In this document: positions 3,359-62,961 of the stretch, piece after piece
Position numbering within the stretch: position 1 is the stretch's first letter
Layout of the letters: every line of letters begins with the position of its first letter
Virus record (IMG/VR): IMGVR_UViG_3300032315_000774
Location: 62,001 to 126,000 of that record
DNA from: a virus
Length of the DNA stretch: 64,000 nucleotides
Direction: 5' to 3' (one strand)
Translations under genes and position numbers: made by a program
The notes under the pieces: model-generated
What the model was told of the DNA's origin: nothing
Seen by the model: only the letters and a program-made list of their open reading frames with translations
Database searches by the model: none

Positions 3359-3387
3359 AAGAATGACTCGTCTTCGATTGTCAGAGA

Positions 3388-20580: not shown

Positions 20581-21969
20581 TCACCTCGGAGTCACGACGA
20601 GCACACCGCCGTCGAAGGTTGGATGCTGATTCGGCGCGAAGGCGATGTCGGCGACACCTGCATCGACCGCGCGTGAAAACTGAATGAACGTCAGGTTGTT
20701 GACAGCCGAGACCGCATTCCGCACGGCATTGTTCACGTCGCTGACTTCCAACGGTTCGCCCTGTGGTGACGCGAGCACGAACGCCTGGATCGCCGCGAGA
20801 ACCGCTTGCTGTGTCGCGACCGGCGAGAAGCCTGAGCGTGTCGTGAAGTCAGCAACGACCGCGATTGGCACACCGACACCACGTCTGTAGAGGAGATCTT
20901 GTCCTACGACTGTGTCGTCTGGACTGGCGTTCGTAGCCTGCATCTGTCGAATGAGTGCGTCGTAGTCGTAGTCGATCGTCACGAGCCCACCGGGCGCAAG
21001 AGGAGCTGCAGGCGTCCGAAGGAAGCGGATGCCGTCGAGCGCGCGTGTCGAGCCCGACAGTGGACCGTCGTCGAACACGACCTCGTAGTCGGTCCCCTCG
21101 ACGTATGTCGTCGCGCCTGCGGTGACGCCGTTGACGCGAAGCATGGGTGGCAAGCTGACGCGAATGAGCTGTCCGACGCCGTAGTATACGTTCTGCTCGG
21201 TGCGCTGCACGCTCTGCCCGTTGCGCACGAAGACGTCCACAGCTCCAGGCTGTGCACGCTCTGGAAAGCGCTCCACGTACACAGAACCGGCTGCGTTGAA
21301 TCCTGTGAGCGCGTTACGCTTGATCCCTGATGGTGTCGCCAGCTGGCGCCCTTGCACAGACAGGAAGAACAAGTCCACCAGCTGTGCGTTCGAGGTCTCG
21401 CCGTCACCGCCGATCGCAGCTGCAGGGTTGGTCACGGCCGAGAAGCCATTCAGCGGGATCAACGGACGCGTGAGCCTGTTCGGGCCGACGCGACTCTCGA
21501 CGCCTGGGCTGACGGCAACAGCTTGCACGCGAAGACGCCACAAGCCGTTCTCCAGGGGAGCGCCGAACGGAAGTGACGCTGCTTCTGTCGTCACGAAGAC
21601 GATCGTCGAGGTCGCGTCACGGACGCCGATAGGCGTGCCACGTGCGACAGGCAGTCCTGCAAGCGGTGGCGCGACCGAGCTTTGGAACTCCAGCGTGACC
21701 GTCGCGTTGGTCCCCGGGCTTGCGATGATGCCCTCGTTCGAGACGATGGCACGGATCTCTTCCGTTGCATCGAGGTCGAGTGCTTCGACCAAGCTCTGGA
21801 CCTGCGAAAGGTCTGCGACGTCAGCACTGAGCTGACCAAGGACGATGGATTGAGGAAAGAGCGACGAGTCGTAGATGGGTCCGTACGTCGTGTCGAGCTG
21901 GTTGTTCGGAACGGTGGCTTGCATTCGAGCAAGCCACTGCGCAGCGGGTACGGCTTCGAATGGCATCAC
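20581..21969 (-). CDS. Baseplate J-like protein, 462 aa
   Basis: Matches the baseplate J/gp47/gp6-like family by order and motifs. There is an N-terminal helix, a GLPVARGTPIGVRDATSTIV presentation strand region, then AAIGGDGETSNAQLVDLFFL in the place of the conserved GG-x-D-x-E-S segment. These proteins form the wedge ring of contractile-tail baseplates. The start overlaps the gp25-like gene by ATGA. Confidence 0.85.
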   Translation of the reverse strand: MMPFEAVPAAQWLARMQATVPNNQLDTTYGPIYDSSLFPQSIVLGQLSADVADLSQVQSLVEALDLDATEEIRAIVSNEGIIASPGTNATVTLEFQSSVAPPLAGLPVARGTPIGVRDATSTIVFVTTEAASLPFGAPLENGLWRLRVQAVAVSPGVESRVGPNRLTRPLIPLNGFSAVTNPAAAIGGDGETSNAQLVDLFFLSVQGRQLATPSGIKRNALTGFNAAGSVYVERFPERAQPGAVDVFVRNGQSVQRTEQNVYYGVGQLIRVSLPPMLRVNGVTAGATTYVEGTDYEVVFDDGPLSGSTRALDGIRFLRTPAAPLAPGGLVTIDYDYDALIRQMQATNASPDDTVVGQDLLYRRGVGVPIAVVADFTTRSGFSPVATQQAVLAAIQAFVLASPQGEPLEVSDVNNAVRNAVSAVNNLTFIQFSRAVDAGVADIAFAPNQHPTFDGGVLVVTPR

Positions 21970-22812: not shown

Positions 22813-23268
22813 TCAGCTCCAGGGAAGTTGGATTGGCGCACCGAACAACCCGGTGCGCATCCAGGGATCGACAACAGCTGCTATCGTCTGAGCGACGACT
22901 CGCGGATCGACCTGCGGTACGACTAGACCTAGCACGAGCGGACCCGCTGGCGGAAGCGCTGTCGGTGTCGCAGCCGCGAACGCCGCGACACCTGCCACGA
23001 TCGCAGGTTCCAGCGATGGGACAACCCCTGTTCCTACGAAGGCCCCTCGAAACGCGCTCAGAGCCGCTGGCGTCGCAGGGGGTAGGGCCGCCTGGCCCAA
23101 GTAGCGTTCGAAGGCTGTGGCCCAGTTCTGCGCTGCCAGGATGCGTGAGCTGATCGGGTCCACGACCCCATTGATCGACAAGATCGGCCACCCCACGAAG
23201 TCTGGCCGCGAGCTGTCGATGACCGCGAGCACCGCCTCGAACAAGGTCGCAGGGGTCAGCGGCATCAC
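22813..23268 (-). CDS. Hypothetical baseplate-region protein, 151 aa
   Basis: Ala/Pro/Val-rich small protein (LPPATPAALSAFRGAFVGTG) with no recognised motif. Overlaps the spike gene by ATGA and is followed by the next gene within three bases. Inferred from context to be a baseplate or spike accessory component. Confidence 0.65.
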   Translation of the reverse strand: MMPLTPATLFEAVLAVIDSSRPDFVGWPILSINGVVDPISSRILAAQNWATAFERYLGQAALPPATPAALSAFRGAFVGTGVVPSLEPAIVAGVAAFAAATPTALPPAGPLVLGLVVPQVDPRVVAQTIAAVVDPWMRTGLFGAPIQLPWS

Positions 23269-30475: not shown

Positions 30476-30960
30476 CAGCCACTGACCTCTTCGACGTACA
30501 GGTACATGAGCGTCGCGCTGGTCATCACTGTGCGGTTCTGATCAGCGGAGAAGGTCTGTCCCATCTGCGTGAACCAGCATCCCTTGTAGACGCGCCTGTA
30601 GTTGTTCTGACCGTCTGGCGACTTCCACACTTCTTCTACGTCGAAGGGCTCGTTCTGGTTGCAGAGCATGGTGAGGTCTGCTGTCCCGAACGCGGTCTTC
30701 ATGCGATTGGTGTAGAGATCGTACCGCGTGATCTGAACCTGTTGACCGCTCTGGTTTTGCGGCACGAGGTCGAAGGGGGCGCCGTTGCCTCCTTGACCGC
30801 CTGTCGACTCGCCAGGACCGCCTTGGAACTCGTACACGAACTGCGCATCGCGGCTCTGTGTCGGGTTCCAGCCGTTGATCGCACCGATGACCGCTCCGTT
30901 GCGACGGATGGTCAGCGCATGCGAGGTTTGGACTTTGGTGACGGGAGGTGTGAGTGCCAT
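30475..30960 (-). CDS. Tail tube protein, 161 aa
   Basis: Directly follows the sheath, the invariant position of the tube gene in contractile tails. The size (161 aa) and beta-rich pattern fit a gp19-like tube subunit (VTKVQTSHALTIRRNGAVIG, CWFTQMGQTF, TSATLMYLYVEE). It has a Gly-rich loop near 48-60. Confidence 0.75.
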   Translation of the reverse strand: MALTPPVTKVQTSHALTIRRNGAVIGAINGWNPTQSRDAQFVYEFQGGPGESTGGQGGNGAPFDLVPQNQSGQQVQITRYDLYTNRMKTAFGTADLTMLCNQNEPFDVEEVWKSPDGQNNYRRVYKGCWFTQMGQTFSADQNRTVMTSATLMYLYVEEVSG

Positions 30961-30968
30961 GTGTCAGA

Positions 30969-33932
30969 TCACCCCTGGAAGAACGGGTTGTCGACCGAGT
31001 ACCGCCCGGAGAGGCGCAGCGCTGGGTATCGGAGGTTGTACCAGTAGTCGAAGAGGAACTGCGTCGGGTCGTTCGGGTCGCGCGACGTCTGAATGTCTTC
31101 GCTGATGTTCAGCGCGCGTGTGACGCCGTTGCGGTCCGTGTACGGTCCGATCGTGCCGCTGGAGATCTCCGCGTTCAGCACGCTCGCGATGACGATCTTG
31201 ATGTCGAGCAGGAAGTCTGCAGGCGACACCGGTACGATACCGACGAGCGATGCATCGAGCGCTAGCTCGACCTTGCGCGTGATGTTGTCCTTCTGCGTGC
31301 TCGTCGACTCGTACTTGAACGCGGGTGCACCTGCGCCACCTGCCTCTGTCGTCACTGGATCGAGCACGCGGAACAGGCCCGCGTCGAACGACGTCACGAA
31401 CGTGCCCTGCGACGCCAAGAGGTTGCTCTCGGTCTGCGTCCAGACCAAGGCGTCGTTGATGTCGTCGAGGTTGAAGCCTGCGACCGTACGTCGCGCGAGC
31501 GACAACGCTGGGTTCGTCAGCGACGAGCGCAGCGCAGCCCACGCCACGGCGAGGTACGTGCTGTCGAGGTTGACGGGGATCGACTCGCCCGACACCCCAT
31601 CCACGTAGCTGTAGCTCACGCCTGTCAGCTGTGGAGGCGCGACCAAGATCGCGCGCCCGCGTGCAGGGCTTGTCGGCGCGAACGCCAACGTACGCGTCGC
31701 CATGTACACGTACGAGCCTGCATCGTCGCGGCTGCCGACGGGTGTCGAGCGCGCCATGCCGAACCAGCCGCGACGGTAGCGCTTCGTGGTCGAGCTGTTC
31801 GCCGTCTCCAGAAGCGCGCGGAAGTCCGTCTGAACCGCGAGCGATGTCGACAGCACGACGAGGTCTGTGATGACGTCCGTCTTCAGCGTGGCGTTCATCG
31901 CCGCTGCGAACTCGGCACGCGTCGGTGACCCAGGCAGCGAGGTGTCGTCGACCTGCACGACCACCACCGAAGGCGGGCGCTGCAGGAAGGCAATCTCCAC
32001 CGCCAGCATCAGCGTGTTCGACGCGGACGTCGGGCCGAGGTCTGCGCGCGCAGCTTCGACCGAGAAGAAGCGCTTCTGCGCGTTGTACTCGTTCGCTGGG
32101 CGCGTGATCGTGAACGTCGCGTAGTAGACGCTCGCCACCGTCGGACGACGCCCTGCACCTGTCACCGTCAGCGGAAGCACCAGCGCTCCGAACAGCGCAG
32201 TCGCCGTCGCCGAAGCGCTCACGGTGATCGATGCGCTCTCGCCTTCCGTTGGCGACGTTAGCACGATCTGGTTGACGCCCGACGGCACGCTGGCCACCGC
32301 ACGGAACGACGGACCGAGCTGCGCTGCGAGCACCGCGTTGATGTTCGCGACGATGTCTGCGAGCGATGCCGTCGCAGGCGTGAACGTGCGGTAGTTCAGC
32401 GGAGGGCTCGCGAGCGCTGACACCTGCACGCTGACCGTCGTGCCGTTGATCGTCATCGAGAACGTGTTGTTCACGCTGACGTCCACCGTGCTCGATCCAA
32501 GCACCGCACCTGCGAACACAGCGGGCGTGTCGGGCGGTGCTGATGGACCGCCCCACGCGATCGAGTTGCCGCTGAGCAAGCAGTCGACGCCGACCGTGAA
32601 GTTGTCCGCGCTCGGCTGGCTCCCGACGCTCGACAGCTCGGTCACGCCCGTGAAGCCTGTCGCGTCGCTGTCCGTCGAGACCGACACGTACGACGCGAGG
32701 TAGACAGCGGTCGTCGAGTACACAGAGCGCGCGACCTGGATGACCGTGCGAGCCAGACGGTTGTCTGCGCCCGCTGCACCGAGCAAGAGCACGGCACCGT
32801 CGTTCGCGATGGCTGTTCCCACCTCGATGTCGCTCGTCGGTGTCGTCGACGGCGAGCGGAGGATGAGACCCGCTGTCGCTGCGTACGCGAAGGCGCTGTA
32901 CGCAGCGCCGAAGCCGAGGCTGCTTGCGCCTGCCAGCGCTGTGTTGATCGCGGTCGCGATTTCACCTCGCGTCGCAGCGGTCGGCGTGCCGTACGTCGTC
33001 GCCACGCGGATCTCGCGACCCAAGATCTGCACCGTACCTGCCGCGACGCCGGTCCCGCTCGTGTGCTGCAGACGCAGCGTCACGGGCGCGATGCCGTCGA
33101 TCGTGAGCGCCAGAGCTGTGCCGTTCACGCTGTACGTGAAGCCTGCACCCGCGTCCGCTGCGCCTGCCGCGTTCACGTACGTCAACGTGGTCGCGCTCGG
33201 CACGCTCGTAATGCGGAACGTGCCGTTGTTCCCAGGCGTCGCCGAACCGGAGACGACGACGAGCGCGCCGACGAGTGCCGCCGTGAACGATGCACCGGCA
33301 TCGGTCAGCGTCTGAACTTGCGAAACAGGCGCAGACACCGAGCCTGCACCCGCGCCCGACTCGACGGCCAGCTGCAAGTTGTAGGGTCCTGCTGCGTTGC
33401 CGATGATGATGCCTGGCACGTAGCGCAGGTACTGGTCAGGAATCGGGGCTCCGTTGCGCAGGTAGTCGCTGTCCTGCAAGCGACGGTTGCCTCGGTTCAC
33501 GAGCACGGCGTTCGGCACGACCTGCCAGGTGAACGCGCTGGTCTCCGTCACGCCTGCTGCGTTCGCGAAGATCACGCTGGTGGCGCTGACGACCTCGACG
33601 ATCGTGAACGTGCCGTTGTTCGCGGGGTTGGTCGCGCCGCTGATGGAGATCTGCGCGCCGACTCGCGTCGCTCCGAACACAGCGCCCGCATCGAGCAGCG
33701 TCACGAGGCCGCCCGCGAACGTGAGCGAGTCGCCTGTGCCTGTCGGAGCCACCAGCGTCAGCGTCTCGTCTTCCACGAGCCCACGTTGCAGCTGCAGGTT
33801 GGTGACCGTTCGTGTCCGGTCCGCCACACCGATGACGCCGATCTGCAGCGGCACGCCCGTGACGCCAGCGGCGTTCGGGACGACGACTTCCTCGATCGTG
33901 ACTCCAGGCGGCGTGTATCCGGTCATGCTCAA
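30969..33932 (-). CDS. Tail sheath protein, 987 aa
   Basis: Begins MSMTGYTPPGVTIEEVVVPN, the PGV-x-x-E signature at the N terminus of sheath proteins. The C-terminal domain (about 800-987) has the sheath fold: LDDINDALVWTQTESNLLAS, FRVLDPVTTE, DNITRKVELALDASLVGIVP. At 987 residues it is larger than most sheaths, because the N-terminal half carries two copies (about 80-140 and 208-270) of a VG-x-x-x-x-I-x-G...NNGTF module plus further beta domains, probably surface decorations. It contracts to drive the tube through the cell envelope. Confidence 0.92.
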   Translation of the reverse strand: MSMTGYTPPGVTIEEVVVPNAAGVTGVPLQIGVIGVADRTRTVTNLQLQRGLVEDETLTLVAPTGTGDSLTFAGGLVTLLDAGAVFGATRVGAQISISGATNPANNGTFTIVEVVSATSVIFANAAGVTETSAFTWQVVPNAVLVNRGNRRLQDSDYLRNGAPIPDQYLRYVPGIIIGNAAGPYNLQLAVESGAGAGSVSAPVSQVQTLTDAGASFTAALVGALVVVSGSATPGNNGTFRITSVPSATTLTYVNAAGAADAGAGFTYSVNGTALALTIDGIAPVTLRLQHTSGTGVAAGTVQILGREIRVATTYGTPTAATRGEIATAINTALAGASSLGFGAAYSAFAYAATAGLILRSPSTTPTSDIEVGTAIANDGAVLLLGAAGADNRLARTVIQVARSVYSTTAVYLASYVSVSTDSDATGFTGVTELSSVGSQPSADNFTVGVDCLLSGNSIAWGGPSAPPDTPAVFAGAVLGSSTVDVSVNNTFSMTINGTTVSVQVSALASPPLNYRTFTPATASLADIVANINAVLAAQLGPSFRAVASVPSGVNQIVLTSPTEGESASITVSASATATALFGALVLPLTVTGAGRRPTVASVYYATFTITRPANEYNAQKRFFSVEAARADLGPTSASNTLMLAVEIAFLQRPPSVVVVQVDDTSLPGSPTRAEFAAAMNATLKTDVITDLVVLSTSLAVQTDFRALLETANSSTTKRYRRGWFGMARSTPVGSRDDAGSYVYMATRTLAFAPTSPARGRAILVAPPQLTGVSYSYVDGVSGESIPVNLDSTYLAVAWAALRSSLTNPALSLARRTVAGFNLDDINDALVWTQTESNLLASQGTFVTSFDAGLFRVLDPVTTEAGGAGAPAFKYESTSTQKDNITRKVELALDASLVGIVPVSPADFLLDIKIVIASVLNAEISSGTIGPYTDRNGVTRALNISEDIQTSRDPNDPTQFLFDYWYNLRYPALRLSGRYSVDNPFFQG

Positions 33933-36878: not shown

Positions 36879-39011
36879 TCAAGCACGAGCCCAGAGGTTG
36901 CGGAACAGAGCCCCGGAAGGCGCGCTGCTGACGAGCTGAGTGAACCGATAGTTGGCCTGCATCTGTACGTGAGCGGCGCCGTAGATGATGAGCTTCTTCT
37001 TGGCTTCGGGGATGAGCTTGTCGAGGCGCTGCGAGATGCGGCCGATGATCGCGTTCAAAGCGGGCTGGTGTTGGATGACGAAGCTCGTTCCCTGCGCACT
37101 GTTGTACGTGGCGATGTTGTCTACCAAGTACGAATGGTCTCCACTTACGGTCAGGTTGAATACTGGCTTGGAGTTAGAGACGCGCTTGACGCTCTTGACA
37201 GGAAGATACACGAAGTCGTCATCGACCATACAAGCTGACGATACTGGACGGTGTCCTGGACGACCGTACGGATAGTCGGACGCTTTTGATTGGTCACCCC
37301 ATACAAGCTGAGCAAGTTCAGCTGCGAAAGGCATAGGAACGACCATCCGATAGTGTTCGACTGAAGTAGTTTCAACTCCTCGAATCAAACTTCTACGTTC
37401 AGGCTGAACGTTCAGTCTCGTCGGAAATCCGAGCTGAGCTAGAATCAACTGAACTTGTCCAAACAACGTTTTCGACGAGGTCGAGTACGTAACGTTGAAG
37501 GAACGACATGTCTTTCCGTTCTTTGTTTGGATCATCCAGTTCTGGCTTCCGTCCCCGCGGAACAGACCTCGAATGAACTCGATCTTGTGTGGCAGTGGCC
37601 AAGCCATCACTTGAGCTGACAGTGCTTTGTCGCAAGAGCCTTCACCGACGTGGCGAAGAGCAAGGTCTACCCAACGCGCAACGGTTCGGTTCTTTCCGTA
37701 GTTGTTTCTGCTACGAAGCTGGAAAGCGCACGCAGAAGGATGGTCTTGCATGTGAAACTTGACATCCGAACACATGGAAATGATGTCAGACGCCCATGTA
37801 TCACGCTCTGCTTCATTGAACGTGAAGCAAATGTTGGTTGGTCTTCCGCTCTCCTTGTCGGTCAAGTTACCTTCGGCAGCGTAGTAACCAAGCATCCGAG
37901 CCTCATCAAGACATACATTCGGTTCTACTTGGTCAAACTTTCGAGGAACGAGCAAGAAGTCGTGCTTGTGGATCTGGTCTGCTCGGAGCTTGCGCAGAGG
38001 TTCATAGTCGTTGAACAACTTCTTTGCTCCGTGAACAGAACAGTACGCAGGAAGCTCTTGATGCTTGTGTCTTGGATTAGCAAGACGAGTGTGATGTCCT
38101 TGCTTGAACATCTGACCGGGCTTGACTTTGTTCTCACAGCCACACCGGCATGTGCGCGGCCATGCCCACACTGGGAAGTTGTGGCCTTCTGTTACTTCGA
38201 ACTTTCGACCGCCCCATGTGGCGATCTCAATCACTGTATCAGGTGTTCCTTCGTTCCAAGCAGCTTCTACGGTTTGTGTGCGTCCAGTTCGGTCAAGAAC
38301 AAGATCGCCAACTTTCACTGATTCGATCGGAGTCGTCTTGCCGTCTGCAGTGACAACAGGTGTACCTTCGACGAAGCAGTAGTTCGGGATGTCGGTGTCG
38401 ACAGCGAACAGCTCTTGGCTCGTGAGACCGACGTAGAGCGCAGCCTCAATGAGACCGTAGCGGTACATCTGCGGGAAGTTGTCGAGAGTGACGAACGTCG
38501 GAAACGGCTCGTACATGTTCCAGATCGACAGCCCGTTGAAGAGGTACGTGAAGAGCTGTGCTTCGGTGTAGCCGAGGAAGCACGGGTTCGCTGGATCGGT
38601 GTCGACGTCTTTGGCCGCCTTGTCGATGACCTCGCGGAGGTCGCTCGACAGCGACAGCGCGTACGCTGAGACGATCCAGATCTTCTGTACCTGTGCGCTG
38701 ATGGGGACGTTGTCGACGGCCACGTTCCAGATCAACAGCATCTCGCCGCCGATGCCTGTCTCGGGGTTCGAGGGTGTTGTGTAGACGACGTCGCCGATCG
38801 AGAAGGAGTAGCGTCCCGTCGCAGGGTTCGTGATGCGCGTGCCTGAGCCGAACGCGCCCTGGAACACGACTGTGTTGTCGAGACGCAGGACGGTGAGGCT
38901 CACGCTCGATGCCTCGACAGGCGTGCCTTGACTGTCGCAGACGAGGATGTCGAGACGTGTGACTGCGTTGATCAAGCCGACGTTGATCGGCGTGGCGACG
39001 ACGACAGGCAT
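36879..39011 (-). CDS. Virion protein interrupted by an intein, 710 aa precursor
   Basis: The extein parts are residues 1-211 and 638-710 (284 aa after splicing). They encode a structural-type protein with an N-terminal beta domain (INVGLINAVTRLDILVCDSQ) and a helical C-terminal part (LFTYLFNGLSIWNMYEPFPT, IGRISQRLDKLIPEAKKKLI). The intein occupies 212-637 and would be removed by self-splicing between Tyr 211 and Ser 638. Position between head/lysis genes and the neck/tail genes suggests a neck or tail-completion protein. The ATG at 39011 follows the previous gene by one base. Confidence 0.8.
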   Translation of the reverse strand: MPVVVATPINVGLINAVTRLDILVCDSQGTPVEASSVSLTVLRLDNTVVFQGAFGSGTRITNPATGRYSFSIGDVVYTTPSNPETGIGGEMLLIWNVAVDNVPISAQVQKIWIVSAYALSLSSDLREVIDKAAKDVDTDPANPCFLGYTEAQLFTYLFNGLSIWNMYEPFPTFVTLDNFPQMYRYGLIEAALYVGLTSQELFAVDTDIPNYCFVEGTPVVTADGKTTPIESVKVGDLVLDRTGRTQTVEAAWNEGTPDTVIEIATWGGRKFEVTEGHNFPVWAWPRTCRCGCENKVKPGQMFKQGHHTRLANPRHKHQELPAYCSVHGAKKLFNDYEPLRKLRADQIHKHDFLLVPRKFDQVEPNVCLDEARMLGYYAAEGNLTDKESGRPTNICFTFNEAERDTWASDIISMCSDVKFHMQDHPSACAFQLRSRNNYGKNRTVARWVDLALRHVGEGSCDKALSAQVMAWPLPHKIEFIRGLFRGDGSQNWMIQTKNGKTCRSFNVTYSTSSKTLFGQVQLILAQLGFPTRLNVQPERRSLIRGVETTSVEHYRMVVPMPFAAELAQLVWGDQSKASDYPYGRPGHRPVSSACMVDDDFVYLPVKSVKRVSNSKPVFNLTVSGDHSYLVDNIATYNSAQGTSFVIQHQPALNAIIGRISQRLDKLIPEAKKKLIIYGAAHVQMQANYRFTQLVSSAPSGALFRNLWARA
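37101..38378 (-). mobile_element. Intein with LAGLIDADG homing endonuclease (426 aa)
   Basis: Block A starts at Cys 1 (CFVEGTPVVTADGKTTPIES, then VKVGDLVL). Block B is EVTEGHNFPVW with the T-x-x-H motif. Two DOD motifs of a LAGLIDADG endonuclease follow (LGYYAAEGN and FIRGLFRGDGS). Block F/G is NLTVSGDHSYLVDN then IATYN, with terminal Asn and +1 Ser. The penultimate residue is Tyr where His is usual. A Cys-rich stretch (CRCGCENKVKPG) follows block B. Codon use is more A/T-rich than the exteins, consistent with horizontal arrival. Splices itself out and could home into intein-free relatives. Confidence 0.93.
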
Positions 39012-42719: not shown

Positions 42720-44012
42720 TCAGAGCTTCACGCCGCGTGCGACGCTGCGCGGGTTCCCGATGCCGAAGCCGACCATCTCCGCGAACGCCCAGCCCTTCTT
42801 GGTCTGGAAGTTGACGAACATGTTGAAGGGTTCGCTGAACAGCTCGATGCGGATGCCCATCTCGCCGAGGTACTCGGGAGCGGTCACCGCGTAGAAGGTC
42901 CCTGCCGGGATCACTTCTTCGACGCCCGTACCCGCTGCCGTCACGATCATCGCGTTGAGGAAGCTACCGAAGTAGCCCGACACGATGAGTTCGCGCTCGG
43001 TGACCGGGTCGACCTGCGCCGACATCGTCTTGATGACGTCCGACAGCTCGAAGCGGCTGATGAGGAACTTCTCGACCACGAGGCGGTGACGCTCGACCTG
43101 CAGACGCACGTCTTCGAGCGGACCGACACCGAGGGTGCCGTAGCTGATCGTCGTGTTGACCGCCTGCGCTGCGGTGTCGAGGAGCGCCACGCCGCGCTTG
43201 TCTTCCTGCAGCTGGATCTCCTGCCGAGCCGTGTCCTGGCCGCGCGCCAGGATGTCGTAGTTCGACTGGTAGATGTCCGTGATGTCGGCCGTGACGTAGC
43301 TGGTGATCTTGCCCTCGGGCGGCACGATCCAGCGACCCGTGACCTGCGACTCCAGACCCTGGCCGTCCTGACCCACGAAGAACGCCGCTGCGCGAACGTC
43401 CTTCTGGATGCGGAACTGCTCGTTCTGGCCGAGCGGACGGACACGCATGACCTTGCGGATCCAGCCCTCGTAGTCGATCAGGTCCTTGATCGGCTCCAGA
43501 AGCTCCTGACCGAGCACCTGGAACCCTTCGGTGTCACGCATCGCCTGCGCGACGATCTGCATGCGAGCTTCGGCGGTGCGCGCCATCTGCTCACGCGTCG
43601 CGCGACGCTTCAGCGTGTTGACGGCGTCGCCCTGCAGGAGCTGCGCTGCCTTCTGCAACGCCTCCTTCTGCGACGAGGCGTTGATCTGGCCACGTGCGTC
43701 GAACACGCGCTCGCGTGAGTCGAACGCTGCACGTGGGTTGAACGAGCCGCCCTGGTCGAAGTTCTGCTCGTCGGATGCCGAGCGGAAGTTCTGGATGACG
43801 TTCGCGGTGCGCTGACGCGCCTCCGCGAGCGCACGATCCTTCGGCGCGAGTCCCTTCGCCGCCGAGACGTTCAGCTGCTTGTCGCGCTGTGCCGCAGCGG
43901 CCTGCGACATGCCGCGCTGCTTCACGTCCATGTTCGGCTCGGGCATCGATGCAGGTGCGCTGCCTGCGCCCTTGTTCGCCATCAGCTGGCGGTAGCGGGT
44001 GAGTGTCGTCAT
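42720..44012 (-). CDS. Major capsid protein (probable), 430 aa
   Basis: Position after portal, protease/scaffold and a decoration-type gene is the standard place. The first 130 residues are charged and helical with many Gln/Arg (GMSQAAAAQRDKQLNVSAAK), the pattern of a delta-domain or N-arm removed by the protease. The rest is mixed alpha/beta as in HK97-fold capsids (ITSYVTADITDIYQSNYDIL, VIPAGTFYAVTAPEYLGEMG). A strong hairpin follows the stop, as often for highly expressed capsid messages. Confidence 0.75.
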   Translation of the reverse strand: MTTLTRYRQLMANKGAGSAPASMPEPNMDVKQRGMSQAAAAQRDKQLNVSAAKGLAPKDRALAEARQRTANVIQNFRSASDEQNFDQGGSFNPRAAFDSRERVFDARGQINASSQKEALQKAAQLLQGDAVNTLKRRATREQMARTAEARMQIVAQAMRDTEGFQVLGQELLEPIKDLIDYEGWIRKVMRVRPLGQNEQFRIQKDVRAAAFFVGQDGQGLESQVTGRWIVPPEGKITSYVTADITDIYQSNYDILARGQDTARQEIQLQEDKRGVALLDTAAQAVNTTISYGTLGVGPLEDVRLQVERHRLVVEKFLISRFELSDVIKTMSAQVDPVTERELIVSGYFGSFLNAMIVTAAGTGVEEVIPAGTFYAVTAPEYLGEMGIRIELFSEPFNMFVNFQTKKGWAFAEMVGFGIGNPRSVARGVKL

Positions 44013-44836: not shown

Positions 44837-47242
44837 TCAGCGGACGAGCTGATCTCGCAGCTTCGCTGTCCGCGTGTTGGTGACCGCCGCTCTGAGAGAG
44901 CCGCCGCGATCGAATGTCGACGCCGGTGTCGGCGCGAACATCAGGTTGCCTTCGACAGCTGCCTGACGCAGCGCCAAGTTCGCCGGGGTCGAGAACTCAC
45001 CGAGCGACGCCGCCATCACGATCGGAGCCGCGACGCGTTCCGCACGGCGGCCCATGTCCTTCTCCAGATCGTTGATGTACTCGGCGCTTCGGCTCGCGAG
45101 GTGCCGCGTCTCGGTTTCGAGCTGCGCGACGAAGTCGGTGAGACCCACGTCGACCGCTTCGTGTGCGAGGCGTGCAGCCAGCTGCTCGTTCATGCCGCGA
45201 TACGACACCGGCTCGGCGGTGATCGGATCGTCGTTCAGCACGCGTGCTTCGATGAGCGATGCCATGACCGCTGACTGCAACGTCTCGTTCGAGACGCGCT
45301 TCGCGGCGATGCGGAGCAGGCGGAAGCACGACGCCAGAGCGTCCTTCTCAGCTGCCACCTTCGCCCGCTGCAGCTCGACTTCGGCCTTGCGTGCGCGCTC
45401 TTCGGCTGCGGCGATCTTCGCCTCCGCCAGCTTCTCGATGCGTGCTGCCGCACGGTCCGTTACGCCGCCGTCGTTCACGCGGTCCTTCACCGTGCGCTTC
45501 TCGGGGCGCTCCGTCTGCGCCATGTCGCCGCCGTCGAGCACGCTCTTCGGTGGAGGCTGACGCTCTGCGAAGTCGTGCGCGCCGCCATCGGCGACGTCCT
45601 TCGTCGGCTTGTCGCGCATCGGCCCGTCGGTCTCTCCACCGTCGGCCACGCTCTTCGCCTTCTCGGGCTTCCGCGCAGGACCATCGGTCTGCACGTCGTC
45701 GAGGACCGAGTTCACGCGCTCGTGGTCGTCGTGACCGACCATGTCGTTGAGGCCGCCGCTCGACACCTGCGCGAGGCGTGGCGACCAGAGACCCTTGAAC
45801 TTCGCAGCTGTGGCCACGAGTCCGTCCGCGAACACCGAAGCGAGGACTTCGCGAGCGTACTCGCGAGGCTGCTTCGTCGCGTGCGCCTTGATGAGCAAGA
45901 TCGGTGTGCTGTTCCGATCGAGCACGCGAAGGTTCCCGTGCGTGGAGCCCTGGACCGCGAAGCCCTTGTAGGTCTCCTTCCATGCGGCCTGCTTGCTCGC
46001 GCCTGGTGGCGACGGCATCAGGCCCATGTTGTCGAGCTGCATCTGCTCGGGCGGAACACCAGGTGCAGGTGTGGGTGCAGGTGCAGGCGGTTCACCGGGT
46101 GCAGGCGGAGCACCTGCCGGTGCTTCCGGCACCTGGGACGTGGGTGCGCTCGGTGTCTCGTTCGGTGAGGGCACGATCGTGATCGGTGGGTCGCCAGGCG
46201 ACACCTGAAGGTCGACCGCCTCCTTGGCCTTGGGCGCGGCGGTGCGCGACTTGACGCTGTTCAAAAGAGCCTCCGTCTCTGCAGCGAGTTCCGCTGCTGT
46301 CGGTGTGTGAGAGGCGATGACTTCGATCGATCTCGCCTTCGGATCTGCGGGCACATCCACACGCGACAGCTCTTCGAACGTCACGTTGTTGCAGGACTCG
46401 AACGCCTTGCGAACTTCGAAGCCGTCTTCAGCACGCACACGCATGAAGTCCTGCGCGACGTACTTCAGCCCGCGACTCTCCAGCTCGTGCTGGACAGCGG
46501 CCTCGTTGATGCGCGCCCACTGACCGTTCTTCGATGTCCAGTACGAGCCCTTCGCGCTGCGGATGTGAGGACAGAACTCAGCGCGCGTATACGCGACGTG
46601 GTCGCAGACGTTGCACGTCGTCGACTCGCAGTTACAGCCCATCGACGCTGTGACCAGGATGCCCTGCTCGACAGCTTCGGCGAACCGCTTGTCCTTCTTC
46701 TTGTCGATGCCGACGAGCGCTTCGACGAACTCGTCTTTGACCAGCGTTCCGCACTTCTTGCAGTGCAGGCCCGTGCGATCACGATCTGCACGATCACCAG
46801 TCGGTGACTGGCACGTCGGACACTCTGCCATCGCAGGCGTCTCGGCGTTGTAGTGCACGGCGAGGATGACGCCACGTGCCGCACGCGGGTTGCTCGCGCG
46901 ATGCTGGATATGGTGTGGCTTCTCTTCGTACGTGCGGTAGACCGGCTTGCCGATCAACGTCGAGAACTTCAGCAGCTCATCGACGTGGAACGCGTCGTTG
47001 TTGTCATTCGGAGCGTTCGTCGTGTTCGCACGGATCGCCTCGAAGAAGTAGTCGCTCGGCTCGGCGCTGATCGCGTAGGTCTCGGCGACCTTCGACAAAA
47101 TCGCCTGCACGTCGATGACGCGAGCACCATCCGTCAAGAAGTGGCTGGCGGACTTCGTCTGCTTCGACGCGACGCGAAGCTGACCTTCCTGCGTCTCGGC
47201 CGTCGCCAAGACCGACACACGCGCTTGGCGGTAGAAGGTCAT
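44837..47242 (-). CDS. Prohead protease fused to a scaffold-like tail, zinc-binding, 801 aa
   Basis: Residues 1-230 resemble a family of phage head-maturation proteases. YFFEAIRANTTNAPND and an IGKPVYRTYEEKPHHIQHRA segment carrying candidate catalytic His precede a strand RGVILAVHY, and candidate Ser 200 lies in VTASMGC. Two zinc sites are suggested by C141/C144/C161/C164 and by C203/C205/C210/C213/C224. Residues about 330-400 are Pro-rich. From about 480 to 640 there are repeated short motifs with DGG (e.g. SVADGGETDGP, DVADGGAHD, SVLDGGDM), then a long coiled coil to 740. This suggests protease, linker and scaffold in one precursor, consistent with its place between portal and capsid genes. 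Confidence 0.7.
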   Translation of the reverse strand: MTFYRQARVSVLATAETQEGQLRVASKQTKSASHFLTDGARVIDVQAILSKVAETYAISAEPSDYFFEAIRANTTNAPNDNNDAFHVDELLKFSTLIGKPVYRTYEEKPHHIQHRASNPRAARGVILAVHYNAETPAMAECPTCQSPTGDRADRDRTGLHCKKCGTLVKDEFVEALVGIDKKKDKRFAEAVEQGILVTASMGCNCESTTCNVCDHVAYTRAEFCPHIRSAKGSYWTSKNGQWARINEAAVQHELESRGLKYVAQDFMRVRAEDGFEVRKAFESCNNVTFEELSRVDVPADPKARSIEVIASHTPTAAELAAETEALLNSVKSRTAAPKAKEAVDLQVSPGDPPITIVPSPNETPSAPTSQVPEAPAGAPPAPGEPPAPAPTPAPGVPPEQMQLDNMGLMPSPPGASKQAAWKETYKGFAVQGSTHGNLRVLDRNSTPILLIKAHATKQPREYAREVLASVFADGLVATAAKFKGLWSPRLAQVSSGGLNDMVGHDDHERVNSVLDDVQTDGPARKPEKAKSVADGGETDGPMRDKPTKDVADGGAHDFAERQPPPKSVLDGGDMAQTERPEKRTVKDRVNDGGVTDRAAARIEKLAEAKIAAAEERARKAEVELQRAKVAAEKDALASCFRLLRIAAKRVSNETLQSAVMASLIEARVLNDDPITAEPVSYRGMNEQLAARLAHEAVDVGLTDFVAQLETETRHLASRSAEYINDLEKDMGRRAERVAAPIVMAASLGEFSTPANLALRQAAVEGNLMFAPTPASTFDRGGSLRAAVTNTRTAKLRDQLVR

Positions 47243-47379: not shown

Positions 47380-49599
47380 TCATCCCCGCACCCAGTCGTC
47401 GTCGCGGTCAGACCCTAGGTTTTCGGGAACTTGCTGCGATTGCGCGGGCTTAGCTTGTTCGTTTTTCAGCGTGCGCTGAAGTTGTCGCACATCTCGTGGT
47501 GGCATCCCACGCAGCAAGAGCCAGTCGGTGACCTCTTCGGTCGCAGCGTCAGCATCACCGAGCGCACGGAGGGCACGGAGCGCGTGCTTCGAGCCCTTCT
47601 TCGCGTCTCGCTGCCATTCGGCCACCATGTCGCTCCAGATCGGCGTGGACGGCTTGTAGCCCTCCAGGACGCGCCGTAGGTCGTCGACGGTCTCGGCAGG
47701 CCACGAGGGTGGGGTCGAGCCGCCGTGAGGCGCTGACGCCCCTTCTGCCGCTTCTGGTGGCGGCCCGGGTGGCGCCTCTTCGGGAGGCGGTCCGCCTTCA
47801 TCGGGCATAGGCACCTCGCCACCGCCACCACCGTCCGTGAGGTTCGACGGAAGCGGTGGAAGCATGCCCATGCCACCGCCACCACCGCCACCGCCTTCGC
47901 CTCCACCGCTGAGCATGGCCGCGAGCTGTGGGTTGGCCTGCAGCACCTGTTGGAGCTTCTTCGAGTCCTGCGCGGCCTGTGCGAGTTCCTTCTCGAAGGA
48001 GCGGTTCGCGAGCGACATCTTGGTGGTCGGCGAGAACTTGATCGGCAAGTTGCGCTCCAGAGTCTCGACTGCGTTGATCGTCGACGCATCGATGCTCGGG
48101 TCGAGCGGGTCTTTCCACTCGATGCGCGGCACGATGTAGCGACGGCTCTCGTCGAGTTCACGCTGCGAGCGCTTCACGCGCACGCCATGCGCCAGCTCGG
48201 CCTCGGTCGGCTTGATGAAGCCACGGAGCTGCGAGATCTGCCGAAAGAACTTCGGGAGCAGCCACTGATTCTCGAACATCGAACGCAGCGTGCGCAGCTT
48301 CTTCAAGAACACCTGAAGGCCAGACTGCGCGCTCGCGTACGTGACTTCGCCCCACAGAAACGCCTTCGAAATGCCCATCGCCATCAGCTTCCGCTGGAGC
48401 AGGTACTCGGCGCTCTGGTCGACCTTCCACGCACGCTCTTGTGAGCCGACGAGGTCGAAGTTGATCGCGTAGTGGAAGACGAACCACGAGACCGGGTCCA
48501 TCTCCGTGTTGACGAGCATGTCGAGGACACGCTCTTCTTGTTCGGGTCCAGGAATCCAACCCGTCGCCGCGTCACCGAGCTTCGCGACCTTGACAGGGGC
48601 ACCTGCTCGACGAGACACAGCGATGCTGGTCGTGTACTGCGAGTCCTCGTACATGAAGTCACGCCACATGCGCGACATGATCGACGTGCCGCGTGTGTCG
48701 TTCGGCTGCATACGCCGCGCGATGAACGAGCAGTTGATCGGGCTCAGCGGGATGTTCTGGCCTGACGACAGCGCTTGCTGAACGACCGCAGGGATCATCT
48801 CGCGTGCCCGCTGTGCGTACGGGTTCGTCGACGTCATGATCTGACGGATCTTGTCGTCGGGACGGAACTCGATGATGGGCTCCATCTGGAGGAACGGCGA
48901 GTACACCACCTCCAGCTGGTTTGGGTTGTGGAGCGCGAGATGCGTCCAGATGCCCAGATTGTCGTCCCAGAACGTGTGAGGCGCGACCTCGCCGACGACC
49001 ATGTACTCCTTCGGCATGTACGGCAGGTGCACCAGGAGCTGCGTCGCCTCGACCGAGTCCTCGAACGCTTGCTTGACTTCTCCGTCTACACCTTCACCCG
49101 TCAGCTGGAACTCGCTGAAGACGAGGTCAGCGATCGTGTCGATGCCTGCACCGACGATCGGGTCGAGCTTGTAGAACATGCGCCAGTAGATGTTGGCGAG
49201 GTTGTGGTGCACCGGATAGTTCTGACGGTCCGGTGAGTCGAACTCGGGCATGTACGGGCGCTGCGGTGAAGTCGCTGTACCGAGGCTCGCCATGCCTGAG
49301 TTCGTGGCGAGCGGGTTCGCTGTGCGTGCCTTGAAGTCCGTGGCCTGCTTCGCCTGTGCGAATCCTGAACCTGCACCAGGTCCCAGCGACATGTTCGGCG
49401 GCATGATGCCGTCGAAGAACTTGTCGACGCGTGTGACAGGCGTGCCGACACGTCGTGCGCCCCACGAGTCGAAGCGCTGATGCATCATCTCGATCTGTTG
49501 AGGATACAAGCTGTGCGGCATCGACTCGGATACAGCGCGTGCACGAGATGCTGCTTCGCGCGGGTTCATGTACTTGGGGCCAGGTCCGAAGATCGTCAT
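47380..49599 (-). CDS. Portal protein, 739 aa
   Basis: A large portal-type protein: the crown/stem region is mixed alpha/beta with YWRMFYKLDPIVGAGIDTIA (wing helix typical of portals), then PVSWFVFHYAINFDLVGSQE and a clip/stem helix region LQVFLKKLRTLRSMFENQWL. The C-terminal 150 residues are Gly/Pro-rich (a run of eight Gly near 580) and end with a helical, charged domain. It forms the dodecameric DNA gate at one head vertex and docks the terminase encoded just upstream. Confidence 0.8.
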   Translation of the reverse strand: MTIFGPGPKYMNPREAASRARAVSESMPHSLYPQQIEMMHQRFDSWGARRVGTPVTRVDKFFDGIMPPNMSLGPGAGSGFAQAKQATDFKARTANPLATNSGMASLGTATSPQRPYMPEFDSPDRQNYPVHHNLANIYWRMFYKLDPIVGAGIDTIADLVFSEFQLTGEGVDGEVKQAFEDSVEATQLLVHLPYMPKEYMVVGEVAPHTFWDDNLGIWTHLALHNPNQLEVVYSPFLQMEPIIEFRPDDKIRQIMTSTNPYAQRAREMIPAVVQQALSSGQNIPLSPINCSFIARRMQPNDTRGTSIMSRMWRDFMYEDSQYTTSIAVSRRAGAPVKVAKLGDAATGWIPGPEQEERVLDMLVNTEMDPVSWFVFHYAINFDLVGSQERAWKVDQSAEYLLQRKLMAMGISKAFLWGEVTYASAQSGLQVFLKKLRTLRSMFENQWLLPKFFRQISQLRGFIKPTEAELAHGVRVKRSQRELDESRRYIVPRIEWKDPLDPSIDASTINAVETLERNLPIKFSPTTKMSLANRSFEKELAQAAQDSKKLQQVLQANPQLAAMLSGGGEGGGGGGGGMGMLPPLPSNLTDGGGGGEVPMPDEGGPPPEEAPPGPPPEAAEGASAPHGGSTPPSWPAETVDDLRRVLEGYKPSTPIWSDMVAEWQRDAKKGSKHALRALRALGDADAATEEVTDWLLLRGMPPRDVRQLQRTLKNEQAKPAQSQQVPENLGSDRDDDWVRG

Positions 49600-49602: not shown

Positions 49603-51342
49603 CTACCTCTGGATCGAGCGATCCGTGCGGACGGACGGCACCAGGTCACTCCACTCTTCCGTCAGCCCACCATCTTGCGTGTCAGGAAGCGCCCAGGCCC
49701 GCTTGCCTGCGGGATTCACAGCGAGCTGCTGCAAGATGGTAGACCAGTCACCCTCGAACCGCAACGCGCGGTCGTCGACGAAGGCGTCGGCTTGTGGCTT
49801 GTGGCCGATCCAGATGTCGCTGAACGGCACACCTACCGAAGTCAAGTAGTCGCTCAGTGCGGCTTCGAGTTCCGCCGTCGAGGTCTCATCGAGCCCAGAG
49901 AATCGCGCCGTGTAGATCGAGACACGCCACCCGAGCTGCATCAGCTCGTTCAGCGCCTCGATCGCGCCCGGAAGAGGGTCACCGAACTTGCCTTCTTCGC
50001 CCCAGCCAGACTCGTACGAGAGGATCGTTCCGTCGAGGTCGACCGCGACCCAAGGCTGACGTTGCGCGCGCATGCCCATGTGCATGCCGTCCGGATACGA
50101 GTTCGCCCAGTCCGTCGCCCAGGACGTAGGCTCACCAGGCTCGTCCGTCGGCTCTGGATGCTCCCAGTCCTTGAACGTCGTCGGGAAGCGTGCGCGAACG
50201 AGGAACGCGCGACGCAAGAACATCTGCGACGCGCGCCATGCAGCCCACGCAGCCGCTTGTGCTTCCTGTGCGGTGAGACCGAACTTCGCTCCCGCGATGC
50301 CGTAGTCACGCGTGACTTGGTCACGGAGAAGGTCTGGGATGCTCTTGTCGAGCGGACGTCCGAGCCAGATGCCGATCGCGTGCTTGTCCACGACGACTTC
50401 GTCTTGGTAGCGGACCGGATCGAAGATCGACAGGAAGAAGGGGAAGACTTTCGGCCCGAGGATCGCCGAGAAGTCGCCCTTCATGATGAGCGCGTAGGCG
50501 CGTTGCATCGACGTGTCGAGGTGGTAGACGCGATCGAACTGACCTGACAGCACAATGTCTGCGCGACGGATGTTCTCGACCCAGTCCGTCTGCGGTGACA
50601 TGATCGCGATGACGCCTGCGACGGTCATCAGGTCTTTGTTGTACTTGCGCGCGAGCTGGACAGCGGTGTCGTGCGCGTACCGATACCACTTGCGCCAGTA
50701 TTCCAGCTCTTCGGGCGTAAGCGTGCTGAGTACGTACTCGATGTTCGCAACGCCCTTCTTCGAGCTGCGCTCGGTGTAGTCCGTCGGGCTCAGACGGCTT
50801 TCGTCGAGGATGTTCTGACGGAACGGGATCATCTCCCGCTTCGACTCGGGTAGGATGTCCAGCTCTTCTTGGATGTACTGCTCGTACTCTTCGTCCGAAA
50901 CAGGCGTGACTTTGAACCTGTGACGGAAGCGCTCGGGGTCTGTGATCGCGTCACGGATCGGCGCGACTTCCTGCGACTTCGGATCGAAGATCCGCATGTC
51001 GAGGAGCTTGTTCTTCGAGCCAGGCGGGAGGGCAGTGACCTCCGACGGCAGCGCGAAGTTCTCGATCGTCGGCATGTGCTTCGTGTACTGCTCCTGCACG
51101 ACGGGAGCGTCCGGCGACACGCGCGGCCACTCGTTCGGATCTTCGAAGCGTCTGACGTGACGGCGCTGCGCTTCCTTGATCCAGTCGCCTTCCCACGCGG
51201 ACTGCAGCGACAGACCGCGAGGCTCGTCAGGCGGCGTCGTGAAGCCTTCGGTCGCTGGATAGGTCCACGGATCGTTGTCGGGCGCGAGCGAGCTGAAGCC
51301 CTCGTCGACTGCAGGTGAATAGTGGAAGGCGTTCTTGGTCAT
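49603..51342 (-). CDS. DUF7178-like domain fused to HAD phosphatase, 579 aa
   Basis: Residues about 195-375 carry VAGVIAIMSPQTDWVENIRR, PKVFPFFLSIFDP, VVDKHAIGIWLG and AQAAAWAAWRAS, the pattern of the helical DUF7178-type family seen in phages and perhaps related to HhH DNA-glycosylase folds (inference). Residues about 430-545 are a HAD domain with VAVDLDGTI (Asp 435, 437), VSIYTARFSG and AFVDDRALRF. The first 190 residues resemble a virion-type N terminus. Lies between terminase and portal with ATGA coupling. It may act on packaged DNA, nucleotides or DNA ends; unknown. Confidence 0.7.
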   Translation of the reverse strand: MTKNAFHYSPAVDEGFSSLAPDNDPWTYPATEGFTTPPDEPRGLSLQSAWEGDWIKEAQRRHVRRFEDPNEWPRVSPDAPVVQEQYTKHMPTIENFALPSEVTALPPGSKNKLLDMRIFDPKSQEVAPIRDAITDPERFRHRFKVTPVSDEEYEQYIQEELDILPESKREMIPFRQNILDESRLSPTDYTERSSKKGVANIEYVLSTLTPEELEYWRKWYRYAHDTAVQLARKYNKDLMTVAGVIAIMSPQTDWVENIRRADIVLSGQFDRVYHLDTSMQRAYALIMKGDFSAILGPKVFPFFLSIFDPVRYQDEVVVDKHAIGIWLGRPLDKSIPDLLRDQVTRDYGIAGAKFGLTAQEAQAAAWAAWRASQMFLRRAFLVRARFPTTFKDWEHPEPTDEPGEPTSWATDWANSYPDGMHMGMRAQRQPWVAVDLDGTILSYESGWGEEGKFGDPLPGAIEALNELMQLGWRVSIYTARFSGLDETSTAELEAALSDYLTSVGVPFSDIWIGHKPQADAFVDDRALRFEGDWSTILQQLAVNPAGKRAWALPDTQDGGLTEEWSDLVPSVRTDRSIQR

Positions 51343-53363
51343 CGTGTTCTCCGTGGCATGAGCGGACGTACGACACCACCACGTGTGCTCCAGTCGCGCC
51401 CGCTCTGTTCGACGCGTTCACGTCGAGTGCGCTTCGAGTTATCGGTCTGAACGTCGCTGATGCCGGACGCTTGGATGATGCGGTTGGCATGGAACACCGT
51501 TCGAATGACGTCGTCGGAGTGTTCTCCGCGTCGGCCTTTGTTCTTGAGCGGGTTCGACACTACGCGTGTGTCTGGGTCCTCTTGCAGCTCGAACAGTTCG
51601 GCGAGCGCGATGCTCTCCATGTGCATGTCGAGGTGAGAGATCTTGGTGAAGTTTGTGCCGTCGAAGTCGTCTGCGTGTGGACGTGGCATGCGGACACGTC
51701 CTTCCATCGCGTTGGCGCGGAACATCGCCACGTCGTCCTTCGACAGTGACCGCTTCTCAGCACGGATGCCCATGTTACGGATCTGCTGGATCATCGAAGT
51801 CGACTGCCAGCGGTCGAACTCGACGGACGCGATCGAGATCTTGTCCTTGAGTTCTTCGATGAGGCGTACGACCGAATCGAACCACACAGGCTTGTTCAGC
51901 TCGGGGACGATACGAAACGTCATCACGACGACCGTGACCTTGTACGGGCCGTCTGTACCTTCCACGATGTCTTCTCGCGAGATGGTCATGGCGAAGCTGT
52001 CGAAGCTCTCACCTGCGTCGAGCGTGATGATGTGCGGTCGGCGAGAGAAGTCGTAGGCCGCGCTCATCACGTACGCGCCCACGTACGTGTTCTTCAGTTC
52101 ATCTTCGAACGTCCGCGTTCCCAGCTGAATGAGCGTAGGCACATCCGCGAGTACGGTCTGACAGAATCGTGGCTGGTTGATGATGAACGGGAACGCCGAA
52201 CCGGGAGGGTTGGCGCCGTAGTCGCGCTCGGCGCCGACAGGATCCTTCATGAACTCGTCGGCCAGCGACTCGCGTGACTCGAACGGTGTGAACTCCCAGG
52301 TCGGCCGATGTTGGAAGTACATGCGCTTCAGCTTGGGTGCTGTGCGAAGAAGCTCCCACGTGTAGTCGGACCGAGACAGCGGCGAGGTCACGCTGAAGAT
52401 CGATCCGATCCACGACGGACCGCCGTACAGCTTGGTGCGTGAACGCAGCGTGCGAAGCGAGCGCTCCATCGCTCGGTACGCTTCACGTGCGGAGAGACGC
52501 GAGTCCTGACCTGTGAAGTACGCCAGCTCGTCGATGAAGGCAGCAGGCCGCGTGCGTCCACGGTTCGCACCCGAGTTTGCAGACAGCGAGACCATGTTGA
52601 GCTTGATTGCAGGATGACCGATGGTGATCTTCTTCTTGCTGACCGTGTACTTCCACGGCGTCGAGTCTGCAGACTCCTGGTTCTTCTCCGCTTGCTGAAT
52701 CCATGTCGTGAAGCGACGAAACCACGGAGCTTCTTCACGAAGGCCGATGTACTTCGCCCAGACGGTGTCTTCAGCCTGCACCGCTGACGACGCCAAGAAC
52801 GCGACCTCGAACGGGTCACGCTTCGCCGTGCCAAAGAACTGAAACAGCCCGCCTGGTGTCGCGAGACCTGTGACGATGAGCCAGTGCTCGATGTAGGTCG
52901 CGATGATTGCTGCCGTCACCGACTTCCCAGCGCGCTGACCGATAACCAAGTGCATCTGGTTGAAGCCGCGAAAGAAGCCCTCTTCTTCGAGCTGTCCACG
53001 CGTGATGTGGCAGCTCGGGCATTCGTCTTCTTGAAGTCTCGGGTTGAACTCCAGAAGAACTTCAGCTGCCAGCTGTTCGCGTGTCTTTCCCCAGCAATCG
53101 CCGTAGTCGCCGTCCTTCGTCGTTCCCGGGTTGCAGATCGGGCAGCGCAGCTCGAAGTAATCGCGCAAGATCTGATACTGCCGCCAGACATCCGCGACCG
53201 AACCGAAGTTCAAGAAGTCGGGGTCCATCACCCAGCGGATGATGTTCGGAGCGACCTGCGTGACCCAGCCGTCTGCAGACGCACCTGTAGCAGTCAGCGG
53301 CGTTGTCTTCGCCGCTTCGTACGATCGCTTCAGCTCCTGTAGGAAGTCGACTTCGCGTGCCAT
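51339..53363 (-). CDS. Terminase large subunit, 674 aa
   Basis: DNA-packaging motor with an ATPase and a nuclease domain. Walker A is GQRAGKS (142-148), Walker B is AFIDE (275-279), and the coupling motif is SVTSPLS (324-330). The RNase H-like nuclease acidic residues are seen in IITLDAGESFDS (D449), VEFDRW (D517) and GEHSDDVIR (D617/618). Before the Walker A region there is an inserted Cys cluster (C74, C77, C90, C115, C118) that may bind zinc. No small subunit was recognised nearby. Confidence 0.92.
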   Translation of the reverse strand: MAREVDFLQELKRSYEAAKTTPLTATGASADGWVTQVAPNIIRWVMDPDFLNFGSVADVWRQYQILRDYFELRCPICNPGTTKDGDYGDCWGKTREQLAAEVLLEFNPRLQEDECPSCHITRGQLEEEGFFRGFNQMHLVIGQRAGKSVTAAIIATYIEHWLIVTGLATPGGLFQFFGTAKRDPFEVAFLASSAVQAEDTVWAKYIGLREEAPWFRRFTTWIQQAEKNQESADSTPWKYTVSKKKITIGHPAIKLNMVSLSANSGANRGRTRPAAFIDELAYFTGQDSRLSAREAYRAMERSLRTLRSRTKLYGGPSWIGSIFSVTSPLSRSDYTWELLRTAPKLKRMYFQHRPTWEFTPFESRESLADEFMKDPVGAERDYGANPPGSAFPFIINQPRFCQTVLADVPTLIQLGTRTFEDELKNTYVGAYVMSAAYDFSRRPHIITLDAGESFDSFAMTISREDIVEGTDGPYKVTVVVMTFRIVPELNKPVWFDSVVRLIEELKDKISIASVEFDRWQSTSMIQQIRNMGIRAEKRSLSKDDVAMFRANAMEGRVRMPRPHADDFDGTNFTKISHLDMHMESIALAELFELQEDPDTRVVSNPLKNKGRRGEHSDDVIRTVFHANRIIQASGISDVQTDNSKRTRRERVEQSGRDWSTRGGVVRPLMPRRTR

Positions 53364-62659: not shown

Positions 62660-62961
62660 GCTGCACCCCGTGCGAACTGCACGAGCGTGCCTTCCGCATC
62701 GAACGTGGCGACGACAGGCACGACCTTCGTCGCGACACGCGCGACCGCCTCGACGATCACACCGCCCGCTTCGGTCTTCCGCACACCAAGAGGCTGCAGT
62801 GCGAAAGCGACACGTGGGGGCTTGCTTGCGTCTGCTTGACGCGTCTGAGGCTCGGAAGCGAGGACGGCCGCCTGGATCTTGCGGGGGATGTCTTTGACCC
62901 AGACCTTGCCGTAGTCCCCGAAATACTTCTGCCAGTAGTCGCGCGTGACGGAGTCGGTCAT
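62656..62961 (-). CDS. Small hypothetical protein, 101 aa
   Basis: Begins MTDSVTRDYWQKYFGDYGKV, a segment that recurs in the 751-aa protein downstream (ASDYWKRYYDEYGDEMVKQL), then a beta-rich half (VVPVVATFDAEGTLVQFARG). Its own TGA overlaps the ATG of the 1159-aa gene. Function unknown. Confidence 0.65.
   Translation of the reverse strand: MTDSVTRDYWQKYFGDYGKVWVKDIPRKIQAAVLASEPQTRQADASKPPRVAFALQPLGVRKTEAGGVIVEAVARVATKVVPVVATFDAEGTLVQFARGAA

What the first reader, a model, noticed from the sequence alone, without database searches (positions are those of the whole stretch)
37101..38378. Full intein with LAGLIDADG endonuclease in a phage virion gene
All splicing blocks are present (Cys1, T-x-x-H, terminal Asn, Ser+1) together with two DOD endonuclease motifs, inserted after Tyr 211 of an unrecognised virion protein. 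The penultimate Tyr instead of His is atypical and may make splicing slow or conditional. Inteins in phages are usually in replication or terminase genes; one in a structural protein is less common. The intein is more A/T-rich than its host gene.
Basis: partly seen in the sequence, partly recalled or inferred. Interest (0 to 1): 0.75.

Follow-up and report, generated by a model that had tools for sequence, protein, structure and literature searches.

The report
Intein inside phage head–tail connector gene
A gene for what is probably the ring joining head to tail in a large uncultured phage carries an apparently intact self-splicing 'protein intron' (intein) with its own DNA-cutting enzyme; this is an ordinary kind of mobile element found in a host protein where I found no earlier report of one.

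Summary
ORF 36879-39011 (-) encodes 710 aa. Residues 212-637 (window 37101-38378) are a 426-aa class-1 intein with a LAGLIDADG (DOD) homing endonuclease. Three lines support this. (1) Curated profiles match: TIGR01445 intein_Nterm and LAGLIDADG_3 above their cut-offs, Pfam Intein_splicing significant but below its cut-off. (2) The AlphaFold2 model (pTM 0.83) matches PI-SceI, TliVMA and PI-PfuI inteins in the PDB. (3) Six orthologues of the host gene lack the insert exactly at Tyr211|Ser; the closest is Rctr197k_060 in a syntenic virion module. The intein's third-position G+C (52%) lies below every equal-length stretch of 27 other genes of the window (minimum 62%), as expected for a recent arrival. 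The host protein matches a PHROG family called 'head-tail connector' and lies between major capsid and baseplate genes; its structural model was too poor to confirm the assignment. Inteins in virion-assembly genes are already known (portal, head-maturation protease). A new member of a known kind with, as far as I could find, a new host protein and insertion site.

The parts
36879..39011 (-). precursor ORF, 710 aa: head-tail connector-like protein with in-frame intein
   Evidence: phrog_17327 head-tail connector E=1.7e-8 over residues 105-200
38379..39011 (-). N-extein, 211 aa, ending ...DTDIPNY
   Evidence: aligns contiguously with C-extein to intein-free Rctr197k_060 (44% identity)
37101..38378 (-). 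intein, 426 aa, class 1, Cys1...Asn426
38172..38378 (-). N-terminal splicing half of the Hint domain, blocks A and B (C1; T63-E-G-H66)
   Evidence: TIGR01445 intein_Nterm 25.9 bits, over cut-off, residues 1-69 of the intein
38004..38153 (-). Cys/His-rich insert between block B and the endonuclease (CRCGC...GHH...CSVHG); possible metal-binding DNA-recognition insert (inference)
   Evidence: sequence; similar CxCGC...GH motif in L006; low pLDDT over most of intein residues 81-125
37404..37901 (-). LAGLIDADG/DOD homing endonuclease domain (approximate limits): motif 1 LGYYAAEGN (E169), K251, motif 2 FIRGLFRGDGS (D276)
   Evidence: LAGLIDADG_3 E=1.1e-9, 38.9 bits over cut-off, residues 265-325; D276 invariant and K251 nearly invariant in 10 inteins; fold match to I-DmoI and I-Tsp061I
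37101..37166 (-). C-terminal splicing blocks F and G: VFNLTVSGDHSYLVDNIATYN, block F His415, penultimate Tyr425, Asn426
   Evidence: Intein_splicing E=6.8e-7, 29.7 bits (cut-off 35.8), best stretch ends at residue 424; alignment of 10 inteins
36879..37100 (-). C-extein, 73 aa plus stop, starting Ser+1 (SAQGTSFVI...)

Best explanation
It is a full-length, class-1, mobile intein with a LAGLIDADG homing endonuclease, inserted into a head-tail connector-like gene of a large tailed phage related to virus Rctr197k. The 710-aa precursor is translated whole. Cys1 starts an N-to-S acyl shift, the thioester passes to Ser+1 of the C-extein, Asn426 cyclises to release the intein, and the 284-aa connector is joined Tyr211-Ser212 (inferred from intact catalytic residues and the Hint fold; splicing itself not shown here). 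The endonuclease probably cuts the intein-free allele in the conserved DNA around the junction, and repair of the cut copies the intein into co-infecting phages (inferred). The intein's low third-position G+C suggests it arrived recently from another genome (composition shown; recency inferred). No special regulatory role needs to be supposed.
For: All class-1 splicing residues except the penultimate His, and both DOD acids, present. Profile matches. AF2 model pTM 0.83; top PDB matches are whole inteins, PI-SceI E=2.7e-18, TliVMA 2.0e-16, PI-PfuI 1.8e-13. Profile against PDB: PI-PkoII 6.6e-29. Six intein-free orthologues collinear across the exact insertion point (Rctr197k_060, L005, L051, L060, L061, L064), three of them with Ser at +1. 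Synteny with Rctr197k over the virion module. Foreign GC3: 0.519 against minimum 0.624 in 514 overlapping equal-length windows of 27 other coding stretches. No other copy in the 137-kb record.
Against: No splicing or cleavage assay. Pfam Intein_splicing is below its curated cut-off (29.7 against 35.8 bits), as is TIGR01443 C-terminal (13.9 against 15.6). Penultimate His is missing. No close relative of the intein (best 25-28% identity), so selection on the endonuclease could not be measured. The AF2 model of a connector homologue was poor (pLDDT 41), so the connector assignment rests on one PHROG match and gene position.
Confidence: 0.93

Rival explanations
1. Slow or conditional intein: penultimate Tyr makes splicing a rate-limiting or stress-sensitive step, so the intein times head-tail joining.
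For: Penultimate His absent; insertion lies in a highly conserved segment of the protein, so the precursor is probably inactive; conditional splicing by other inteins is published (papers listed).
Against: A penultimate-Gly phage intein splices to completion and is slowed by His (PMC5050341); the block F His is present; all six orthologues do without the intein, so there is no conserved regulatory role.
Confidence: 0.06
2. Splicing-dead or decaying insert that inactivates the connector, the phage record being a defective genome.
For: Below-cut-off match to Pfam Intein_splicing; penultimate residue unusual.
Against: Open frame with no stops in intein or exteins, all nucleophiles intact, exteins well conserved (44-54% identity) in an intact-looking virion module. 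A dead intein in an essential gene would be lethal.
Confidence: 0.03
3. Non-splicing Hint protein (BIL-type or hedgehog-like) that cleaves without ligating, leaving two connector pieces.
For: Hint_2 and Hint profiles also match weakly; BIL and hedgehog chains appear in the PDB list.
Against: Terminal Asn plus Ser+1 and an endonuclease domain are full-intein features; intein-free orthologues are one continuous protein across the junction.
Confidence: 0.02

Closest known systems
Eggerthella phage LE2-3 LE23_71 intein (head maturation protease; record labels it 'tRNA synthetase')
   Same: 388-aa intein, Hint + DOD endonuclease, C1...N, in a virion-assembly gene; covers the whole query in tblastn (E 6e-14)
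   Different: 24-28% identity; different host protein; penultimate His; +1 Cys
IMG/VR L006 intein (head maturation protease-like ORF)
   Same: 425 aa, whole-length alignment (25% identity, E 3e-23), similar CxCGC...GH insert, +1 Ser
   Different: different host protein and site; penultimate His
Mycobacteriophage subcluster C1 portal-protein inteins (Kelley et al. 2016, PMC5050341)
   Same: inteins in a head/neck structural gene of mycobacteriophages; class-1 phage inteins often lacking penultimate His
   Different: portal rather than connector; sequences not compared here
PI-SceI (yeast VMA intein) and TliVMA intein
   Same: same two-domain architecture by fold and profile
   Different: about 13-15% identity; cellular ATPase hosts
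Virus Rctr197k_060 (KX853510)
   Same: syntenic orthologue of the host protein, 44% identity, ...DSDIPNYSAQG...
   Different: no intein: the empty site

Membership tests
Class-1 full-length intein | Nucleophile (Cys/Ser) at position 1 and block A | tested here: met
   Cys1; TIGR01445 over cut-off
Class-1 full-length intein | Block B T-x-x-H | tested here: met
   T63-E-G-H66; His invariant in 10 inteins
Class-1 full-length intein | Terminal Asn and Ser/Thr/Cys at +1 | tested here: met
   Asn426, Ser+1
Class-1 full-length intein | Penultimate His (usual, not obligatory, so not a defining residue) | tested here: not met
   Tyr425; absent from many class-1 phage inteins, one of which is shown to splice completely (PMC5050341), and from 4 of the 13 inteins compared here
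Class-1 full-length intein | Hint fold | tested here: met
   AF2 pTM 0.83, pLDDT above 90 for most of the splicing halves; best PDB matches are inteins
Class-1 full-length intein | In-frame insertion absent from orthologues at the exact junction | tested here: met
   six intein-free orthologues
Class-1 full-length intein | Protein splicing activity | not testable with these tools
   needs expression
LAGLIDADG (DOD) homing endonuclease | Two LAGLIDADG motifs with acidic catalytic residues | tested here: met
   E169 and D276; LAGLIDADG_3 E=1.1e-9 over cut-off; fold match to I-DmoI
LAGLIDADG (DOD) homing endonuclease | Cleavage of the intein-free allele | not testable with these tools
   likely site located, no assay
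Head-tail connector protein (PHROG 17327) | Profile match | tested here: met
   E=1.7e-8, residues 105-200; but orthologues P0002 and P0005 give no match at 0.001
Head-tail connector protein (PHROG 17327) | Connector fold | tested here: inconclusive
   AF2 of a homologue pLDDT 41; no PDB sequence match
Head-tail connector protein (PHROG 17327) | Position between capsid and tail genes | tested here: met
   portal 47380-49599, protease 44837-47242, capsid 42720-44012, this gene 36879-39011, baseplate wedge 20581-21969

The most novel reading that the evidence does not exclude
The intein has been domesticated as a timer: unspliced connector subunits cannot form the neck ring, so a slow (penultimate-Tyr) or stress-responsive splicing step delays head completion or tail joining until packaging is done.
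Probability: 0.05. Interest if true: 0.6.

Novelty: new member of a known kind. Interest (0 to 1): 0.25.

Why it matters
It adds a host protein to the list of phage assembly proteins invaded by inteins (terminase, portal, head-maturation protease, now a head-tail connector-like protein), with a documented empty site in orthologues. It also shows that a missing penultimate His should not by itself be read as evidence for slow splicing in phages. Beyond that it is ordinary mobile-element biology.

Tried and rejected
Close relatives of the precursor in viral and genome contigs: none. Orthologue search in genome contigs: two weak matches whose translation looks like an unrelated membrane protein resembling a chloride channel. 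A tree of 13 inteins to find the donor: unresolved, only the LE2-3/L009 protease pair is supported, so no claim of a jump from the neighbouring protease gene. Structure of a connector homologue: too poor to search. Other inteins or DOD endonucleases in the 137-kb record: none; three separate HNH matches. Which phages underlie PHROG 17327: the Finch and HyRo proteins tested belong to other PHROGs. Papers naming both an intein and a head-tail connector: three hits, of which I opened only one, the cluster J mycobacteriophage paper, whose inteins are in terminase.

Full report
Check of the observation. The window is bases 62001-126000 of a 137,165-base virus record. The minus-strand ORF 36879-39011 encodes 710 aa. 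The stretch 38378-37101 encodes 426 aa from Cys212 to Asn637, followed by Ser, and leaves a 284-aa joined product.

Is it an intein? TIGR01445 (intein_Nterm, 25.9 bits, cut-off 24.5) and LAGLIDADG_3 (38.9 bits, cut-off 22.5) pass curated thresholds. Pfam Intein_splicing (E 6.8e-7) and TIGR01443 (intein_Cterm) fall below theirs. A profile of ten inteins, including this one, finds solved inteins such as PI-PkoII, TliVMA, PI-SceI and PI-PfuI. The AlphaFold2 model built with ten sequences has pTM 0.83 and mean pLDDT 79. Its best PDB matches are whole inteins, led by PI-SceI at 2.7e-18, then intron-encoded LAGLIDADG enzymes. The poorly modelled part is mainly the Cys/His-rich insert between block B and the endonuclease.

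Empty sites. The strongest evidence is comparative. Rctr197k_060 (KX853510) aligns over the whole extein at about 44% identity and reads ...DSDIPNYSAQGAAFVI... where the window has DTDIPNY-[intein]-SAQGTSFVI. Five IMG/VR contigs carry further intein-free orthologues: L005 (PNY|NDQG), L051 (PNW|SDQG), L060 (PSF|NDQG), L061 (PQY|SDQG) and L064 (PNW|NDQG). Ser at +1, which the splicing chemistry can use, occurs in three of six. The insertion sits in a highly conserved part of the protein, the usual habit of inteins. Near the junction, window and Rctr197k DNA are nearly identical (GACATCCCGAACTAC|AG[T/C]GCGCAGGG), a plausible homing site.

The host gene. Residues 105-200 match PHROG 17327, head-tail connector (E 1.7e-8). 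In the direction of transcription the gene follows terminase (51339-53363), portal (47380-49599), head-maturation protease (44837-47242) and major head protein (42720-44012), and precedes a baseplate wedge gene (20581-21969). Most of this module is collinear with Rctr197k, which is also the best match for the major head protein (59%). The literature places Rctr197k near PaBG and Mieseafarmvirus phages (PMC7412058). I could not confirm the connector fold: the model of the L005 homologue is poor (pLDDT 41), and two orthologues give no PHROG match at 0.001. 'Connector' is likely, not proven; 'virion or assembly protein' is well supported by position.

Origin. The intein's G+C is 50.7% against about 60.7% in the exteins; its GC3 of 51.9% is below the lowest of 514 overlapping windows of equal length from 27 coding stretches (62.4%). 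That fits arrival from a genome of lower G+C. Its nearest relatives found are only 25-28% identical: L006 and LE2-3, both in head-maturation protease genes. A tree does not resolve its place.

Mechanism. With every class-1 residue except the penultimate His present, ordinary splicing is the best reading (inferred). Published data argue otherwise: class-1 mycobacteriophage inteins often lack this His, one with Gly splices to completion, putting His there slows it, and an upstream block F His can take the role; the same paper notes that other inteins respond differently (PMC5050341). The block F His is present here. Among 13 inteins compared here, four lack the penultimate His (Tyr, Ser, Ser, Gly).

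Place among known things. Inteins in phage assembly genes are established: terminase (PMC5050341, PMC3556154, PMC7156551, PMC3706429), portal of subcluster C1 mycobacteriophages (PMC5050341), and, in sequences read here, head-maturation proteases (LE2-3, L006, L009) and a portal (L017). My literature search, limited to open papers and to three hits of which one was opened, gave no report of one in a head-tail connector. This is therefore a new member of a known kind with a probably new host protein and insertion site, of modest interest.

Noticed in passing
window 815-3473: Cluster of 25 tRNA genes on the minus strand, covering most amino acids.
   Followed up: no
window 38004-38153: Cys/His-rich insert (CRCGC...GHH...CSVHG) inside the intein between block B and the endonuclease; L006 has a similar CxCGC...GH stretch and LE2-3 another Cys/His-rich stretch in the corresponding part. 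Possibly metal-binding DNA recognition.
   Followed up: partly
L003 (Eggerthella phage LE2-3) 5587-8700: LE23_71, labelled 'tRNA synthetase', looks like a head-maturation protease interrupted by a 388-aa intein before the Cys of SMGLN|CETTTC; L009 has an intein at or next to the same site.
   Followed up: partly
L011 3851-7867: ORF of about 1339 aa with two apparent inteins (penultimate Ser and Gly); by eye a portal-like host protein, but no PHROG match to portal.
   Followed up: partly
window 49603-51342: 579-aa protein between terminase and portal joins a DUF7178 domain to a region matching phosphoheptose isomerase and polynucleotide kinase PHROGs.
   Followed up: no
G000:C1:50752-50889, 30952-31089, 22861-22986 (outside the window): Three HNH nuclease matches over the family cut-off elsewhere in the same virus record.
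   Followed up: no
window 13131-17987 and 59180-63274: Very large minus-strand ORFs (1618 and 1364 aa) with no PHROG match at 0.001.
   Followed up: no
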